Source: Neisseriaceae bacterium (GTDB taxonomy: Bacteria; Pseudomonadota; Gammaproteobacteria; Burkholderiales; UBA11063). Taken from it: 64,000 nucleotides of DNA. The notes under the pieces were generated by a model. That model did not search any database. It was not told the origin of the DNA and saw only the letters and a program-made list of their open reading frames with translations. Numbering within the stretch: the stretch's first letter is position 1; every line of letters begins with the position of its first letter. The translations under genes were made by a program, and so were the position numbers. Location of the stretch: the NCBI GenBank assembly GCA_947446595.1, contig CANFGS010000004.1:1-64000 (forward strand). Direction: 5' to 3'. Shown in pieces: positions 10,241 through 62,376 of this stretch.

Positions 10241-10251
10241 ACTTACATATT

Positions 10252-10394
10252 ATCTTTCGGGGCTGGGTGTAATTCCCTACCGGCGGTGATAAAACAGCAA
10301 TGTTTTTAGCCCGTGACCCGCTGTATCATAAATATAGCGGTGGAGTTCAGTGAGAAACTGACGCCGACAGTTAAAGTCTGGATGGGAGAAGGAT
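10252..10394 (+). ncRNA. FMN riboswitch (RFN element)
   Basis: The conserved RFN blocks are all readable in order: ATCTTTCGGGGC at 10252, GGGTGTAATTCCCTACCGGC near 10265, GGCGGTGATAAA, AGCCCGTGACCC, a variable arm, GGTGGAGTTCAGTGAGAAAC near 10340, TGACGCCGACAG and finally TCTGGATGGGAGAAGGAT to 10394. The first and last blocks close the P1 stem (ATCTTTC with GAAGGAT). Binding of FMN would repress ribD and the genes behind it. An AT-rich stem pairing TACCAA (10399-10404) with TTGGTA (10425-10430) follows. It may be part of the expression platform, but it lacks an immediate T-run, so I cannot say whether control is transcriptional or translational. Confidence 0.95.
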
Positions 10395-10529
10395 CTAATA
10401 CCAAAAAATCAATAGATTTCTATATTGGTAATGACTTATCATTTTTGTGATTAATTATTGCTATATTTATGTATATTGTCTATCCCTACCCTACGAAAGC
10501 ATTTATAATTATACTAATTAAAGAATAAA

Positions 10530-11621
10530 ATGCAACATACCGACTATATGAATTTGGCACTACAATTAGCAAAAGCAACTGAGGGACAGACTTCTCCCAA
10601 CCCAAGTGTGGGAGCTGTTTTGGTTAGAAATAATCAGGTTGTCGGGATTGGAAGTCATTTATTTGCTGGTATGGAACACGCCGAAATCTATGCTATTGAT
10701 ATGGCAAAAGCAAATGCCAATGGTGCTACACTATATGTAACACTTGAACCATGTGTCCATCACGGTAAACAAACACCGCCGTGTGCCAAAGATATTATTG
10801 ATGCTGGGATAAAAAGTGTTTATATTGCAACACTTGATTTAAACCCTGAAGTTGCTGGTAATGGTGTTAAAGCACTACTAGATGCTGGGGTTCATGTAGA
10901 AGTTGGGATACTTGAATTTGAAGCTAAACAGCTTAATCAAAAATTCTTTTATTACATTCAAAATAAATTACCTTATTTAACCCTCAAAGCTGGTATTAGC
11001 TTAGATAGTAAGCTTGCTACATATACTACTGAAAGTAAATGGATATCAAATCCTAAGTCTTTGGCAGACTCTTATTATTATCGTCATAATCACGATGCAA
11101 TATTAGTTGGTATTGGTACGGTTTTAATAGATAATCCAAGCCTTACAACAAGAATTGAAGGTGGTGGTAAAAACCCAATACGAGTAGTTTTGGATACTAA
11201 TTTACGTACCCCACTTGAGTCTAACTTGATAACTGATGGCTTAAGTCCTACTTTGATAGTATGTGGTAATGGTGTTAGTGATGAACAAATAGCTAAATTT
11301 GCAAGTTTTTCATTAGTTAAAATCCTAAAAATGCCAACCCCAGAAATAGATTTATTTATTATGCTTAAGAAATTGGCAGAGCTACAGGTAACTTCAATTT
11401 TGGTTGAGGGTGGCAATAAAATTATAAGTAGTTTCTTAGATAAAGGGTTAATTAATCAATTGGTACTATATATAGCCCCAATATTAATTGGTGGAAAAAA
11501 TGCCCCAACATTTTTTGCAGGAACAGGTTTTGCTAAATTGTCAGAAGCATTGAAGTTGGAGTTTGAGCCGGTTGAGTATTTGGATGGTGATATAAAGATA
11601 GTTGCAAATAGAGTTGTTTAG
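10530..11621 (+). CDS. ribD: Bifunctional diaminohydroxyphosphoribosylaminopyrimidine deaminase / reductase
   Basis: Carries out the second and third steps of riboflavin synthesis from GTP. The N-terminal deaminase domain has zinc ligands H50 (in HAE), C75 (in PCVHH) and C85 (in PPCAKD). The C-terminal NADPH-dependent reductase domain starts near residue 147 (LTLKAGISLDSKLA) and includes WISN and VEGGNKIISSFLD. Total 363 residues, normal for the fused form. ATG 10530 follows AAAGAATAAA, a weak ribosome-binding site, 136 bases after the FMN aptamer; a weak site would suit translational control. First gene of the rib cluster. Confidence 0.96.
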   Translation: MQHTDYMNLALQLAKATEGQTSPNPSVGAVLVRNNQVVGIGSHLFAGMEHAEIYAIDMAKANANGATLYVTLEPCVHHGKQTPPCAKDIIDAGIKSVYIATLDLNPEVAGNGVKALLDAGVHVEVGILEFEAKQLNQKFFYYIQNKLPYLTLKAGISLDSKLATYTTESKWISNPKSLADSYYYRHNHDAILVGIGTVLIDNPSLTTRIEGGGKNPIRVVLDTNLRTPLESNLITDGLSPTLIVCGNGVSDEQIAKFASFSLVKILKMPTPEIDLFIMLKKLAELQVTSILVEGGNKIISSFLDKGLINQLVLYIAPILIGGKNAPTFFAGTGFAKLSEALKLEFEPVEYLDGDIKIVANRVV

Positions 11622-11695
11622 TGCAAGAGCATGGATCCCATCCTTCGATGGGATGACTTTTTTGTCATTCCAGCGCAGGCTGGAATCCATGCCCT
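11621..11695. repeat. Palindromic intergenic repeat cluster 1 (two short hairpin modules)
   Basis: Lies between ribD and ribE. One module is GGATCCCATC-CTTC-GATGGGATGAC (stem CCCATC/GATGGG). The second is inverted, with a TTCCAGC/GCTGGAA stem. The outer arms read AGAGCATGGATCC and ATCCATGCCCT and pair with each other, so the whole cluster could form one large cruciform. The first 37 bases are identical to the start of cluster 5 near 46106, suggesting a recent copy. Confidence 0.85.
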
Positions 11696-11736
11696 AAAAA
11701 TGTTATATTGAGAAATTTTTTTAAAGAAGAGACTAT

Positions 11737-12327
11737 ATGTTTACTGGAATAATTGAAGAAATCGGACATATTAAAAAAATTGCTACTAAAAATCAAGCAA
11801 TGGAATTATCAATTGGTGCAACCAAAATCTTAGAAGATGTTAAATTAGGGGATAGCATTGCAATTAATGGGGTATGTTTGACAGTTACTGACTTTAGTAA
11901 AGACTCTTTTAGTGTTGATGTTATGCCAGAGACATTTCGGGCAACTTCTATGGCAACTCTCTCAGTTGGTTCGCCATTAAATTTGGAACGTGCACTTGCT
12001 ATTGGCGATAGACTTGGTGGACATTTTGTAACTGGACATGTCGATGGTGTTGCAAAGATTACTCAGATTATGCCTATTGATAATGCTGTTAATTATACAT
12101 TAGAAATGGATAGTGAATTAATTAAACACTGTATTTTTAGAGGCTCAATAGCAGTTGATGGAATAAGTTTAACTATTTTTGGTGTCACTGATAATAATAT
12201 ACAGCTATCGCTTATCCCACACACGGTTAGTCATACTATCTTGGGTAGTAAAAAGGTAGGCGAAAAAGTTAATATTGAGTGTGATATGTTAAGTAAACAC
12301 GTTGCAAACATTATAGATAAAAAATAA
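11737..12327 (+). CDS. ribE: Riboflavin synthase, alpha chain
   Basis: Dismutates two 6,7-dimethyl-8-ribityllumazine molecules to riboflavin, the last step of the pathway. It consists of two lumazine-binding barrel repeats: repeat one begins MFTGIIEEIG and contains IAINGVCLTV, and repeat two has GHFVTGHVDG and IAVDGISLTI. 196 residues, slightly under the usual 200-215. AAGAAGA before the ATG serves as ribosome-binding site. The gap of 115 bases to ribD is filled by a hairpin repeat, but the common orientation and pathway still suggest one riboswitch-controlled unit. Called ribC in some species. Confidence 0.95.
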   Translation: MFTGIIEEIGHIKKIATKNQAMELSIGATKILEDVKLGDSIAINGVCLTVTDFSKDSFSVDVMPETFRATSMATLSVGSPLNLERALAIGDRLGGHFVTGHVDGVAKITQIMPIDNAVNYTLEMDSELIKHCIFRGSIAVDGISLTIFGVTDNNIQLSLIPHTVSHTILGSKKVGEKVNIECDMLSKHVANIIDKK

Positions 12328-12329
12328 TT

Positions 12330-12425
12330 AGAGCATGAGTCCCAAATTCGTATCGAGGCAGCATTATGTTCTTGTTTGGGATGACTTTTCTTCCGTCATC
12401 CCAGCGGAGGCTGGGAACCATGTAC
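12330..12425. repeat. Palindromic intergenic repeat cluster 2 (one long and one short module)
   Basis: Fills the ribE-ribBA gap. The long module occupies 12341-12385 on the plus strand: stem CCCAAA/TTTGGG, loop with the conserved CAGCA core, then ATGAC. A short inverted module follows at about 12396-12415, with stem CCCAGC/GCTGGG. The outer arm GAGCATGAGTCCC is one substitution set away from the usual GAGCATGGATCCC. Confidence 0.85.
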
Positions 12426-12469
12426 TTGCACTAATTATTCACTAGCAGATTTTTGATTTAAAGGTAAAT

Positions 12470-13669
12470 ATGAAAAATACATTTGATACTATAGCTGATG
12501 CAATTAATGACCTTAAACAAGGTAAAATTGTTATTGTATGCGACGATGAGAATCGCGAAAATGAAGGTGATTTTGTCGCTTTAGCAGAATTTGCTACACC
12601 AGAAGTTGTTAATTTTATGATTACTCATGGGCGTGGGCTAGTTTGTATGCCAGTTTCGGTAGAATATGCAGAAAAACTTAATCTAACGCCCATGGTTAAT
12701 AAAAATACTGATAATCTAAATACTGCTTTTACTATTAGTGTTGATCATATTACTAATTCTACTGGAATTAGTGCATTTGATCGTGCAACTACTATTACTA
12801 AAATAATTGATCCCAAAAGTGCAATAAATGATTTTAGACGGCCAGGACATATATTTCCTCTAGTTGCGATAAAAAATGGAGTTCTTGGTCGCTTGGGGCA
12901 TACTGAAGCAACCGTTGATTTAGCAAGGATGTGTGATTCAAAACCAGCGGGAATAATATGTGAAATTATGAATACTGACGGAACTATGGCACGAGTTAAT
13001 GATTTATTTAAGATAGCAACTAGATTTGATTTAAAGATTATTACTATTAAAGATCTAGTTCTTTATCGTAAAAATGTAGAAAAATTGATTAAACGTGAAG
13101 CTGTTGCTGAACTTCCAACTCAAATTGGTAAATTTGATATCTATGGGTATTCAAATACTTTTGATGATAAAGAGCATCTTGCAATTGTAAAAGGTGATTT
13201 AAAATATAGTGATAAAATACCACTAGTAAGAATTCATTCTGAATGCCTAACGGGAGATGTATTTCATTCCTTACGCTGTGATTGTGGAGAGCAGTTAAAT
13301 AAAGCGCTCACCACGATTGAAAAAGAGGGTGTTGGGGTGGTTATTTATCTACGTCAAGAAGGGCGTGGGATTGGGCTAATAAACAAAATTAAAGCTTATA
13401 AATTGCAACAAGAAGGTCTAGATACTGTTGAAGCAAATTTAAAGCTTGGATTTCCTGATGATATGAGAGAATATCTTATTGCAGCACAAATCCTTCGTGA
13501 TTTGGATTGTACTGAAATTCGCGTAATTACCAATAATCCAGAGAAAATTAAAGAGCTTGAAAGTTATGGTATTAAAGTAAGTGGAAGAGTTGTTTTGGAA
13601 AGTACCCGTTACCCTGAAAATACGCGGTATCTTGATACAAAAGTAGAAAAATTTGGACATTTTTTATAG
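12470..13669 (+). CDS. ribBA: Bifunctional DHBP synthase / GTP cyclohydrolase II
   Basis: Makes both riboflavin precursors: 3,4-dihydroxy-2-butanone 4-phosphate from ribulose 5-phosphate (residues 1 to about 200) and the pyrimidine from GTP (about 205-399). Domain one shows [11 protein letters not shown] with the acidic metal site, then RRPGHIFPL and GHTEATVDL. Domain two has zinc cysteines C259, C270 and C272 ([16 protein letters not shown]), then [13 protein letters not shown] and DTVEAN. Many proteobacterial RibBA proteins have a degenerate C-terminal half; here the cyclohydrolase residues look intact. AAGGTAA precedes the ATG. It is followed by ribH after 11 bases. Confidence 0.95.
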
Positions 13670-13680
13670 GAAGAACAAAA

Positions 13681-14133
13681 ATGGTATATGAAGGTAAATT
13701 AAATGGCGAAGGGCTTAAAATAGCTGTAGTAGTTGCTAGATTTAATGAGTTTATTACATCAAAACTACTATCAGGCTGTGATGGTGCACTTCGTCAACAC
13801 GGAGTAACTGATACTGATATTATATGGGTTCCTGGAGCATTTGAGATTCCTCTAGTAGCTAAAAAACTAGCTAAAAGCAGTAAATATAATGCAATCGTGG
13901 CACTAGGTGCGGTTATTAGGGGTTCTACTACGCATTATGACTATGTATGTAATGAAACAGCCAAAGGTATTTCTAATGTGAGTCAAACACATGAAATACC
14001 AGTGATTTTCGGAGTATTAACTACTGAAAATATCGAACAAGCTATTGAGAGAGCTGGTACCAAAGCCGGTAATAAGGGTGCAGATGCCGCAATTTGTGCA
14101 ATAGAGATGGCGAATTTACTTAAATTAATATAA
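13681..14133 (+). CDS. ribH: 6,7-dimethyl-8-ribityllumazine synthase
   Basis: Condenses the RibA/RibD product with dihydroxybutanone phosphate to lumazine, the substrate of RibE, and usually forms icosahedral or decameric shells. RFNEFIT, the GAFEIPLVA substrate loop and [17 protein letters not shown] with the catalytic His are the family signature. 150 residues is standard. A ribosome-binding site (AGGAAGA) precedes the ATG. It is the last rib gene, so the cluster holds the full set of named enzymes from GTP and ribulose 5-phosphate to riboflavin, apart from the phosphatase. Confidence 0.96.
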
Positions 14134-14155
14134 CTATGAGGCTTGGTCTTTGTTA

Positions 14156-14345
14156 GGGCATGGATCCCAGCCTGCGCTGGGATGACGGGGAAAATGCTGG
14201 GATGACGGGGAAATGCTTTGATGACGTAAAAAAGCGCTGAGATGACTAATCAATAGTATGTTTTTGTTGAAGATGACGTTTTTCCTGTCATCCCAAACAT
14301 GAACTATTTGCTGTTTCAATACGAGTTTGGGATCCATGCTCTTGT
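14156..14345. repeat. Palindromic intergenic repeat cluster 3 with a short tandem expansion
   Basis: Between ribH and fmt. It opens with a short module (GGATCCCAGC-CTGC-GCTGGGATGACG, about 14162-14187). The right arm is then repeated in tandem: units starting GCTGGGATGACGGGG at 14176 and 14196 (20 and 19 bases), a diverged one at 14215 and a remnant near 14234. A long module on the minus strand (14287-14331) with the conserved loop core closes the cluster and ends in GGGATCCATGCTCTTG. It may also terminate rib transcription. Confidence 0.85.
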
Positions 14346-25709: not shown

Positions 25710-25734
25710 TATATATTTTCTTGCGTGAGAATTA

Positions 25735-25774
25735 TAGAGCATAGATCCCAGCCTCCGCTGAAATTCATGCTCTT
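25735..25774. repeat. Palindromic intergenic repeat cluster 4 (one decayed short module)
   Basis: Between the convergent Pal-like gene and glyA. AGAGCATAGATCCCAGC then CTCC then GCTGAAATTCATGCTCT: both outer arms are present, but the inner stem has lost several pairs, so it appears to be an old copy. It may still act as a bidirectional terminator. Confidence 0.7.
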
Positions 25775-25783
25775 ACCCTAAGT

Positions 25784-46091: not shown

Positions 46092-46105
46092 AACGTTTAT
46101 CAAAA

Positions 46106-46370
46106 GTGCAAGAGCATGGATCCCATCCTTCGATGGGATGACGTGTAGGAACGATGGTATGACACGTGCAGGAACGATGGTATGACACGTGCAGGAACGA
46201 TGGTATGACACGTGCAGGAACGATGGGATGACGTGTAGGAACGATGGGATGACGTGTAGGAACGATGGTATGACGAAGAAAAGCACGGAGATGATGGAGA
46301 TGAAGTCAAGTCTGTCATCCCAGACAAAAACAAGATGCTGCATAAATGCGAGTCTGGGATCCATGCCCTA
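46106..46370. repeat. Palindromic intergenic repeat cluster 5 with minisatellite
   Basis: Between gdhB and rlmD, which converge. A short module at about 46117-46142 (stem CCCATC/GATGGG) is followed by a minisatellite (46141-46272), then filler, then a long module on the minus strand (46314-46358; stem CCCAGAC/GTCTGGG, CAGCA core), ending GGGATCCATGCCCT. The outer arms AGAGCATGGATCCC and GGGATCCATGCCCT face each other, so the whole block is one element with an expanded centre. Confidence 0.9.
46141..46272. repeat. Six-unit minisatellite inside repeat cluster 5
   Basis: Six direct tandem units: three of 23 bases (46141, 46164, 46187) then three of 21 bases (46210, 46231, 46252). The unit reads ACGTGYAGGAACGATGG then KATG, with an extra AC in the 23-base form. 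CGATGGGATGACG within the unit equals the right arm of the adjacent short hairpin, so the array grew from that arm. The units are directly adjacent with no spacers, so this is not a CRISPR. Confidence 0.92.
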
Positions 46371-46387
46371 ATATGACAAATCTGAAG

Positions 46388-48677: not shown

Positions 48678-48796
48678 ATATGCTATATTTCCTATGGCAA
48701 GATACTTTGCCGTTAATTTTTAAATAAGCTATATTTTACCATGAGGCGGTGATGTATTTCATTTTCTTTTATATTCTCAGATTTTATTAGGCAGTT

Positions 48797-48921
48797 AGGG
48801 CATGGATCCTCGATTCACATTTAAGCAGCAATCAGTTTTTGTCGAGGATGACGTTCTGGGAATGCCGCATCAATAGGATCTATCATCAAACATGAATACC
48901 AGCCTGCTGCTTCGATGACGG
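48797..48921. repeat. Palindromic intergenic repeat cluster 6 (one long module and decayed remnants)
   Basis: In the 253-base gap between lipA and the serine hydrolase. The long module at 48808-48852 (plus strand) has stem CCTCGA/TCGAGG in place of CCCAAA/TTTGGG, yet keeps the CAGCA core and the trailing ATGAC. Decayed short-module sequence (CCAGCCTGCTGCTTCGATGA) follows at about 48900-48920. Confidence 0.8.
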
Positions 48922-62071: not shown

Positions 62072-62298
62072 CCGTCATCGAAGCAGCTAATCCGTCATCC
62101 CAGCGGAGGCTGGGATCCATGCACTTGCCCTAAAAGTGTGAATTAGAGCATGGATCCCAAACTCTATACGAACAGCATCAAGTTCGTGTTTGGGATGACG
62201 GTGGAGAGTGAACGGCATCATATTAATGTATAGACGGCTTAATTGTCATCGAAGCGGCTAATTCGTCATCGAAGCAGGAGGCTGGGATCCATGCTCTA
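62072..62298. repeat. Palindromic intergenic repeat cluster 7 inside the nuo operon
   Basis: Fills most of the 338-base gap between nuoK and nuoL. A short inverted module at about 62093-62122 (CCCAGC/GCTGGG stem, ending GGGATCCATG) is followed by a long module at 62156-62199 (plus strand; one base shorter than the others, CAGCA core kept), then a second, partly decayed short module ending GGGATCCATGCTCT near 62298. Fragments reading CGTCATCGAAGC occur twice more. The rest of the gap holds only the nuoL ribosome-binding site. Confidence 0.88.
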
Positions 62299-62376
62299 GT
62301 AGAGCAGGATTATGTTTTAAGCAAAGAACAACGGAATAGATTTTTTGAGTTATGCACTTATTTTAGGAATTAAAAA

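What the first reader, a model, noticed from the sequence alone, without database searches (positions are those of the whole stretch)
12341..12385. Five copies of a 44-45-nt hairpin with a fixed loop core and co-varying stems
Long modules at 12341-12385 (+), 14287-14331 (-), 46314-46358 (-), 48808-48852 (+) and 62156-62199 (+) align base by base once oriented (the last has a 1-base deletion). The stem changes on both sides together: CCCAAA/TTTGGG, CCCAGAC/GTCTGGG and CCTCGA/TCGAGG. The unpaired middle keeps CAGCA and a GTT a few bases later, and every copy ends in ATGAC. A changing stem around a constant loop indicates selection on the structure plus a recognised loop, not simple copy decay. 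Candidates are a REP/MITE-type element recognised by a transposase-like protein, or an RNA motif in mRNA tails. The function is inference.
Basis: seen in the sequence. Interest (0 to 1): 0.62.

Follow-up and report, generated by a model that had tools for sequence, protein, structure and literature searches.

The report
Long-loop CGTC-type REP hairpin repeats
The five hairpins belong to a family of about 86 short, spreading DNA repeats in a freshwater relative of Aquella; they look like known CGTC-tagged REP repeats but carry an unusually long loop whose core seems to be checked when a copy spreads rather than after it has landed.

Summary
The five modules align as described, and a covariance model built from them finds 86 copies in this 1.74-Mb Aquella genome. 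The 9-bp stem is 97.8% paired, with both-sided changes at 6 of 9 pairs. CAGCA is nearly invariant while neighbouring loop bases are close to random. The module has the tag (CGTC/TGTC), 9-bp stem beginning A-T/T-A, CCA tail and tag-to-tag pairing of CGTC-tagged REPs (PMC3733652), but a 25-27-nt loop instead of 4-5 nt. Canonical 4-nt-loop CGTC-1 hairpins are its partners in the same composites. It is confined here to three closely related species. Sites gain, lose and swap modules between species. In 22 cleanly orthologous copies, 16 stem changes were all uncompensated, and CAGCA changed about as often as variable loop bases. So the covariation mostly reflects discrete stem types that spread as intact units; selection seems to act at copying, not on the resident hairpin. 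No RAYT (Y1) transposase was found. Best reading: a new long-loop subfamily of CGTC REPs, spreading as REPIN-like composites, mobilised in trans by an unidentified enzyme.

The parts
14285..14344 (-). long module 2, between lumazine synthase and formyltransferase genes
46312..46371 (-). long module 3, convergent gap after the glutamate dehydrogenase gene
48795..48854 (+). long module 4 (CCTCGA stem type); present in relative G001, no module at the site in G010
62143..62201 (+). long module 5 (1-base deletion in loop), after nuoK-like gene; CAGCA is AAGCA in the G001 orthologue
11617..11700 (.). composite of two short CGTC-type hairpins, tag to tag; the same site in G010 holds two long modules
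12393..12434 (-). short CGTC-1 hairpin, tag-to-tag partner of long module 1
14150..14186 (+). short CGTC-1 hairpin heading the composite that ends in long module 2
14187..14277 (+). run of solitary right-arm half-units ending GATGAC, the last like the 3' half of a long module
   Evidence: direct reading
46105..46142 (+). short CGTC-type hairpin (CCCATC stem) heading the composite that ends in long module 3
46131..46275 (+). tandem right-arm half-units, period 21-23 nt, each ending ATGAC
62091..62134 (-). short CGTC-1 hairpin (CGTCATCCCAGCGGAGGCTGGGATCCATG), 4-nt loop, beside long module 5
62239..62299 (-). degraded half-unit and short hairpin closing the module 5 composite
25730..25781 (.). 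isolated degraded short hairpin of the same family

Best explanation
The module is a long-loop subfamily of the CGTC-tagged REP repeats. Modules occur in intergenic composites in which two hairpins (long with short, or long with long of another stem type) face each other tag to tag, as in REPINs. SHOWN: about 86 copies in this genome, two further species with many, discrete stem types each with both arms matched, modules present, absent or of another type at the same site in related species, and no special protection of stem pairing or loop core after insertion in clean orthologues. INFERRED: composites spread as non-autonomous mobile units; an enzyme acting in trans recognises tag, stem and loop core in a folded single strand, so only copies with a matched stem and intact TGCTG are copied; once landed they decay, duplicate in tandem into half-unit arrays and exchange pieces with other copies. 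The mobilising enzyme is unknown; I found no known REP transposase gene.
For: 86 long copies; stem 97.8% paired, 58 two-sided cells against 12.2 in shuffles, and 97.4%, 164 against 54.8, in relatives. CAGCA 3.7% mean pairwise difference among paralogues against 53% for variable loop columns and 17.6% for the stem. Base after GAC gives CGTC in 52, TGTC in 24 of 86; CCA tail 83-85 of 86 per column. Short partners: 40 of 42 have an 8-bp stem and 4-nt loop. Where a partner was found on the tag side, 33 of 36 face tag to tag; in G010 33 of 33 long/long pairs at 23 loci join different stem types. Presence/absence and swapping: clean empty site L117 against G001, window 48795 lacking in G010 but present in G001, 11617-11700 short-short here and long-long in G010. 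Resident copies: 22 clean orthologous pairs, 16 stem changes, none compensated; CAGCA 4/110 against variable loop 17/347, Fisher p 0.79; 0.38 CAGCA changes expected if resident copies were as constrained as paralogues, P 6e-4. Narrow distribution.
Against: Published CGTC REPs have 4-5-nt loops as a rule, so loop length departs from the family. No transposition event, intermediate or enzyme was seen; the one clean empty site has no obvious target duplication and could be a deletion. With all 33 orthologous pairs, conserved loop and tag positions do change less than variable loop ones (13/429 against 79/517, p 4e-11), and in all 33 there is one compensated pair; I ascribe the difference to swapping between copies, because the variable loop in G010 pairs differs more (24%) than flanks (13%), but some protection of resident copies is not excluded. 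In the clean set the stem (4.0%) changes less than the flanks (7.9%). The clean set was defined by an identity threshold. CAGCA counts are small, and two of the four changes are in one module.
Confidence: 0.7

Rival explanations
1. An RNA motif in mRNA 3' regions: the hairpin with its fixed loop is bound by a protein or protects or ends transcripts, and selection keeps stem and loop at each site.
For: 76 of 81 copies lie between co-directional or convergent genes and only 5 between divergent ones; convergent gaps are enriched against the window's 2 of 19 gaps.
Against: No strand preference in co-directional gaps (23 with, 28 against). Stem substitutions between species at a given site are uncompensated in clean orthologues. 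Sites lack or swap modules in relatives 7-13% divergent in flanks. No T-run after the hairpin. REPs of several kinds show this position bias (PMC3733652).
Confidence: 0.12
2. Stem covariation comes from DNA-level arm-to-arm template switching or gene conversion in quasi-palindromes, with no recogniser; the loop core is kept because all copies descend from recent masters.
For: Stem types recur on many loop backgrounds (ATCCCAAAC on 25 loop types); a chimaeric copy with mismatched arms exists (L075); half-units in one array share changes (L025 against L046).
Against: Variable loop positions lying between invariant ones are nearly random across copies, which shared recent descent cannot give without a filter on the invariant ones. 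No compensated change was seen in 22 clean orthologous pairs.
Confidence: 0.2
3. GTAG-type REPs mobilised by a RAYT (TnpA-REP) transposase.
For: Size, dispersal, hairpin plus tag plus recognised loop bases resemble RAYT substrates (PMC8266576); other species of the genus have Y1 transposases.
Against: Tag is CGTC/TGTC, not GTAG. No Y1_Tnp match in this genome (99.98% complete) or in G001 and G010. MAGs can lose transposons, so absence is strong but not absolute.
Confidence: 0.05
4. Target or attachment sites maintained by an integrase, as dRS3 repeats are for filamentous phage in Neisseria.
For: The short partner resembles dRS3 (ATTCCC-N8-GGGAAT, PMC3898611) in kind and host family; an IS4-family element sits in the loop of one short hairpin in G001.
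Against: No IS110 (Piv-type) recombinase match in this genome or G001, one in G010; no viral contig holds the long module; being a target does not explain copy number.
Confidence: 0.07

Closest known systems
CGTC-tagged REPs (Di Nocera et al. 2013, PMC3733652), families CGTC-1 to CGTC-4
   Same: CGTC/TGTC tag, 8-9-bp stem beginning with A-T and T-A pairs, CCA tail, tag-to-tag (HH) dimers often of unlike partners, no transposase beside them; the short partners here fit CGTC-1
   Different: loop of 25-27 nt with fixed TGCTG/CAGCA core; extended conserved tail CCATGCYCTAA; 21- and 42-44-nt half-unit arrays
Neisserial dRS3 and NIME mosaics (PMC3898611)
   Same: same bacterial family, intergenic mosaics built of short palindromes and other repeats
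   Different: dRS3 is a 20-bp repeat with a short centre; I know of no long-loop partner; the RS units were not compared here
REPINs (Bertels and Rainey 2011, PMC3116915)
   Same: inverted REP doublet with spacer as the probable spreading unit; position in extragenic space
   Different: REPINs go with a RAYT gene; none found here
IS200/IS605 ends and TnpA-REP substrates (PMC8266576)
   Same: hairpin plus short tag, with a few loop or bulge bases read by the enzyme; a functional analogy only
   Different: GTAG or other guide, no CGTC; no HUH Y1 enzyme found here

Membership tests
CGTC-tagged REP | unpaired CGTC (or TGTC, CCTC) at one end | tested here: met
   CGTC 52, TGTC 24, GGTC 6, AGTC 4 of 86 (column 70 read on the other strand, with GAC nearly invariant)
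CGTC-tagged REP | stem of 8-9 bp starting with A-T, T-A pairs | tested here: met
   9 bp; first pair A-T in 79 and second T-A in 77 of 85 distinct rows
CGTC-tagged REP | loop of 4-5 nt | tested here: not met
   long module 25-27 nt in nearly all copies; the short partner meets it (40 of 42 with 8-bp stem and 4-nt loop). The source paper itself notes other loop lengths in some species, so I call this a variant related to the family, not a typical member
CGTC-tagged REP | short unpaired tail, mostly CCA | tested here: met
   CCA in 83-85 of 86 per column, extended to CCATGCYCTAA
CGTC-tagged REP | mostly tag-to-tag dimers | tested here: met
   33 of 36 found tag-side partners are inverted; 33 of 33 long/long pairs in G010 are of unlike stems; 50 of 86 had no partner by my strict search
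CGTC-tagged REP | no adjacent transposase gene | tested here: inconclusive
   no Y1, IS110 or TnpB-type match in the genome; DDE and rve genes exist and the two examined (L210, L216) have no modules at their ends; other enzyme families not searched
REPIN / RAYT system | GTAG tag | tested here: not met
REPIN / RAYT system | Y1 (RAYT) gene in the genome | tested here: not met
   none in G000, G001, G010
Neisserial dRS3 | ATTCCC-N8-GGGAAT | tested here: not met
   long module has about 26 nt or more between arms; short partner is ATCCCAGC-N4-GCTGGGAT, similar but not this string
Integron attC | R''/R' core (RYYYAAC/GTTRRRY) and cassette spacing | tested here: not met
   no such core at the ends of the 86-row alignment (by eye); modules in the window lie between ordinary core genes
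Known Rfam family | match at gathering score | tested here: not met
   only an FMN riboswitch and a tRNA in the window

The most novel reading that the evidence does not exclude
CGTC REPs do have a dedicated mobilising enzyme, of a type not yet linked to REPs, and in this Aquella clade it reads a TGCTG loop core together with tag and stem; the long-loop subfamily is a recent expansion under that enzyme, which should be in these three species and rare in sister species.
Probability: 0.3. Interest if true: 0.65.

Novelty: new variant of a known kind. Interest (0 to 1): 0.4.

Why it matters
How CGTC-tagged REPs spread is an open question (PMC3733652 found no dedicated transposase). This clade gives a young, active-looking family with a long loop in which invariant and free positions can be told apart, in three species 7-13% divergent in flanking sequence, so gain, loss and swapping can be read directly and the features a mobiliser must recognise can be listed. 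It also shows a general caution: covariation among paralogous repeats need not mean that each hairpin is maintained in place.

Tried and rejected
Inner helix inside the loop (columns 31-36 with 45-50): 69.6% paired against 69.3% in shuffles, not supported. Strand-specific RNA structure from G-U against A-C one-sided changes: balanced apart from one pair (col 23-58, 20 T-G), so no strand signal. RAYT, IS110 and TnpB-type enzymes: none in this genome. Two DDE and rve transposase genes of this genome (L210, L216) have no modules at their ends. A reverse transcriptase exists in this genome (C9) but was not found in G001 or G010, which carry the modules, so it is an unlikely mobiliser. Viral carriage: no exact match in IMG/VR. 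L139 is a probable chance match, apparently inside a coding region. Target duplication: none obvious at the cleanest empty site.

Full report
Observation. The five modules were aligned in their stated orientation. They share a 9-bp stem, 45 of 45 cells paired, three pairs changed on both sides, the CAGCA and GTT loop bases and the ATGAC end. The fifth copy lacks one loop base. Single-copy folding energies are unremarkable except for the fifth. Rfam has nothing here beyond an FMN riboswitch and a tRNA.

Where it lives. The genome has 1,737,106 bases in 57 contigs. One same-genus genome is a single contig of 2,820,660 bases (L058), the published chromosome length of Aquella oligotrophica P08T (PMC6612550, abstract), so the genus is very probably Aquella (Neisseriaceae). 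A covariance model from the five finds 86 long modules; weaker hits are mostly a 28-nt short hairpin, GTCATCCCAGC-GNAG-GCTGGGATCCATG in form (27 exact-pattern copies). Of 41 genomes, two other same-genus species have many hits (G010 with 125, G001 with 52), two have a few weak ones (G006, G015), the rest none. A further 250-genome sample of the order gave only this genome, at lower sensitivity. A fixed pattern over 84,980 species hit only the two corresponding Neisseriaceae MAGs and one probable chance match; no viral contig.

Anatomy over 86 copies. The outer stem is 97.8% paired; 58 cells have both sides changed against 12.2 in shuffles and at most 11 when slid. 143 copies in the relatives repeat this (97.4%, 164 against 54.8). 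Stem types are discrete: ATCCCAAAC, ATTCCAAAC, ACCCCAAAC, ATCCCAGAC, ATCCTCGAT and a few more, and the common ones occur on several loop backgrounds. Loop columns fall into two classes: CAGCA, TC, TT and T nearly fixed, and the four bases after CAGCA and most of those before it nearly free. The extra helix that one copy suggests is not supported.

What it is. Turned over, the module reads CGTC or TGTC, ATCCCAAAC, loop, GTTTGGGAT, CCATG. That is the plan of CGTC-tagged REPs: tag, 8-9-bp stem starting A-T/T-A, CCA tail, HH dimers, no transposase (PMC3733652). Its partners in the same intergenic composites are textbook CGTC-1 hairpins with 8-bp stem and 4-nt loop. Only loop length fails the family definition. 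So: same kind of thing, a long-loop variant.

Context. By a simple ORF caller, 51 copies lie in co-directional gaps, 25 in convergent and 5 in divergent ones; co-directional copies show no strand preference (the baseline is small). Three composites of the window lie in one riboflavin operon, after the ribD-like gene, after the riboflavin synthase gene and after the lumazine synthase gene.

Dynamics. The relatives are close enough to align site by site. Some sites are empty in one relative: L117 against G001, a clean case; window 48795 against G010; L018 against G010. Some sites hold different modules: the gap at 11617-11700 has two short hairpins here and two long ones in G010 within corresponding boundaries. 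Half-units arise by tandem duplication: L120 has one unit of about 42 nt more than its G001 orthologue, and head spacing in arrays peaks at 21 and 42-44 nt. In G010 every one of 33 tag-to-tag long/long pairs, at 23 loci, joins unlike stems, 29 of them the same pair of types. That fits a heterodimer spreading as a unit; the suggestion that unlike arms escape cleavage of long palindromes is the published one (PMC3733652) and was not tested here.

If each resident hairpin were under selection, orthologous copies should keep CAGCA and change stems in pairs. In 22 clean orthologous pairs the stem changed at 16 of 396 bases, every change one-sided (10 between a Watson-Crick pair and a mismatch, 5 between Watson-Crick and G-T, 1 between G-T and mismatch); CAGCA at 4 of 110, variable loop at 17 of 347, aligned flanks at 7.9%. 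Scaling from the paralogues, 0.38 CAGCA changes were expected and 4 seen, P 6e-4. In the full set of 33 pairs the conserved positions do change less (p 4e-11), but there the variable loop differs more than the flanks in G010, which points to replacement by other family members. I conclude that the fixed loop core and matched stem are requirements of spreading, with at most weak upkeep afterwards. The numbers are small and the clean set was chosen by an identity threshold.

Mobiliser. No Y1_Tnp, IS110 DEDD or TnpB-type match in this genome. DDE and rve genes exist, and the two examined carry no modules at their ends. One reverse transcriptase gene was found in this species only among the three. 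The enzyme is therefore unknown. That loop bases and tag are read by single-strand transposases is established for TnpA-REP (PMC8266576), and is used here as analogy only.

Verdict. Real, well supported, and an unusual variant of a known repeat class, with an ordinary broad category and an open mechanism.

Noticed in passing
L211 80-1590 (G001:C128): An IS4-family element (452-aa transposase) sits in the loop of a short CGTC REP: ATCCCAGCCTTCG | CCATATCG...CGATATGG | CCTTCGCTGGGAT, with CCTTCG on both sides, a probable target duplication.
   Followed up: partly
window 46131-46275: Tandem right-arm half-units of 21-23 nt, each ending ATGAC, after a complete short hairpin; similar arrays with period 21 and 42-44 nt occur elsewhere.
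   Followed up: partly
window 10249-14344: Riboflavin operon headed by an FMN riboswitch with REP composites in three of its gaps.
   Followed up: no
L096 1594-2252 (G000:C9 end); G010 contig ends: Tandem arrays of whole composites (period about 141-172 bp) sit at contig ends and probably broke the assemblies, so copy numbers are minima.
   Followed up: no
L095 1757-2393 (G000:C9): A BrnT/BrnA-like toxin-antitoxin pair (by reading the translation) lies between two near-identical composites.
   Followed up: no
L221 772-3142 (G000:C9): A 559-aa reverse transcriptase ORF beside an ORF resembling a type I restriction specificity subunit, perhaps a defence locus.
   Followed up: no
L079 about 1600-1760 and L126 about 1700-1990: A second repeat family with inverted AAGAAAG/CTTTCTT segments, present at different sites in this genome and in G001.
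   Followed up: no
L075 1501-1561: A chimaeric module: left arm of the TTCC type, right arm of the CGAGG type, stem broken; its site in G010 has an intact CCTCGA stem.
   Followed up: partly
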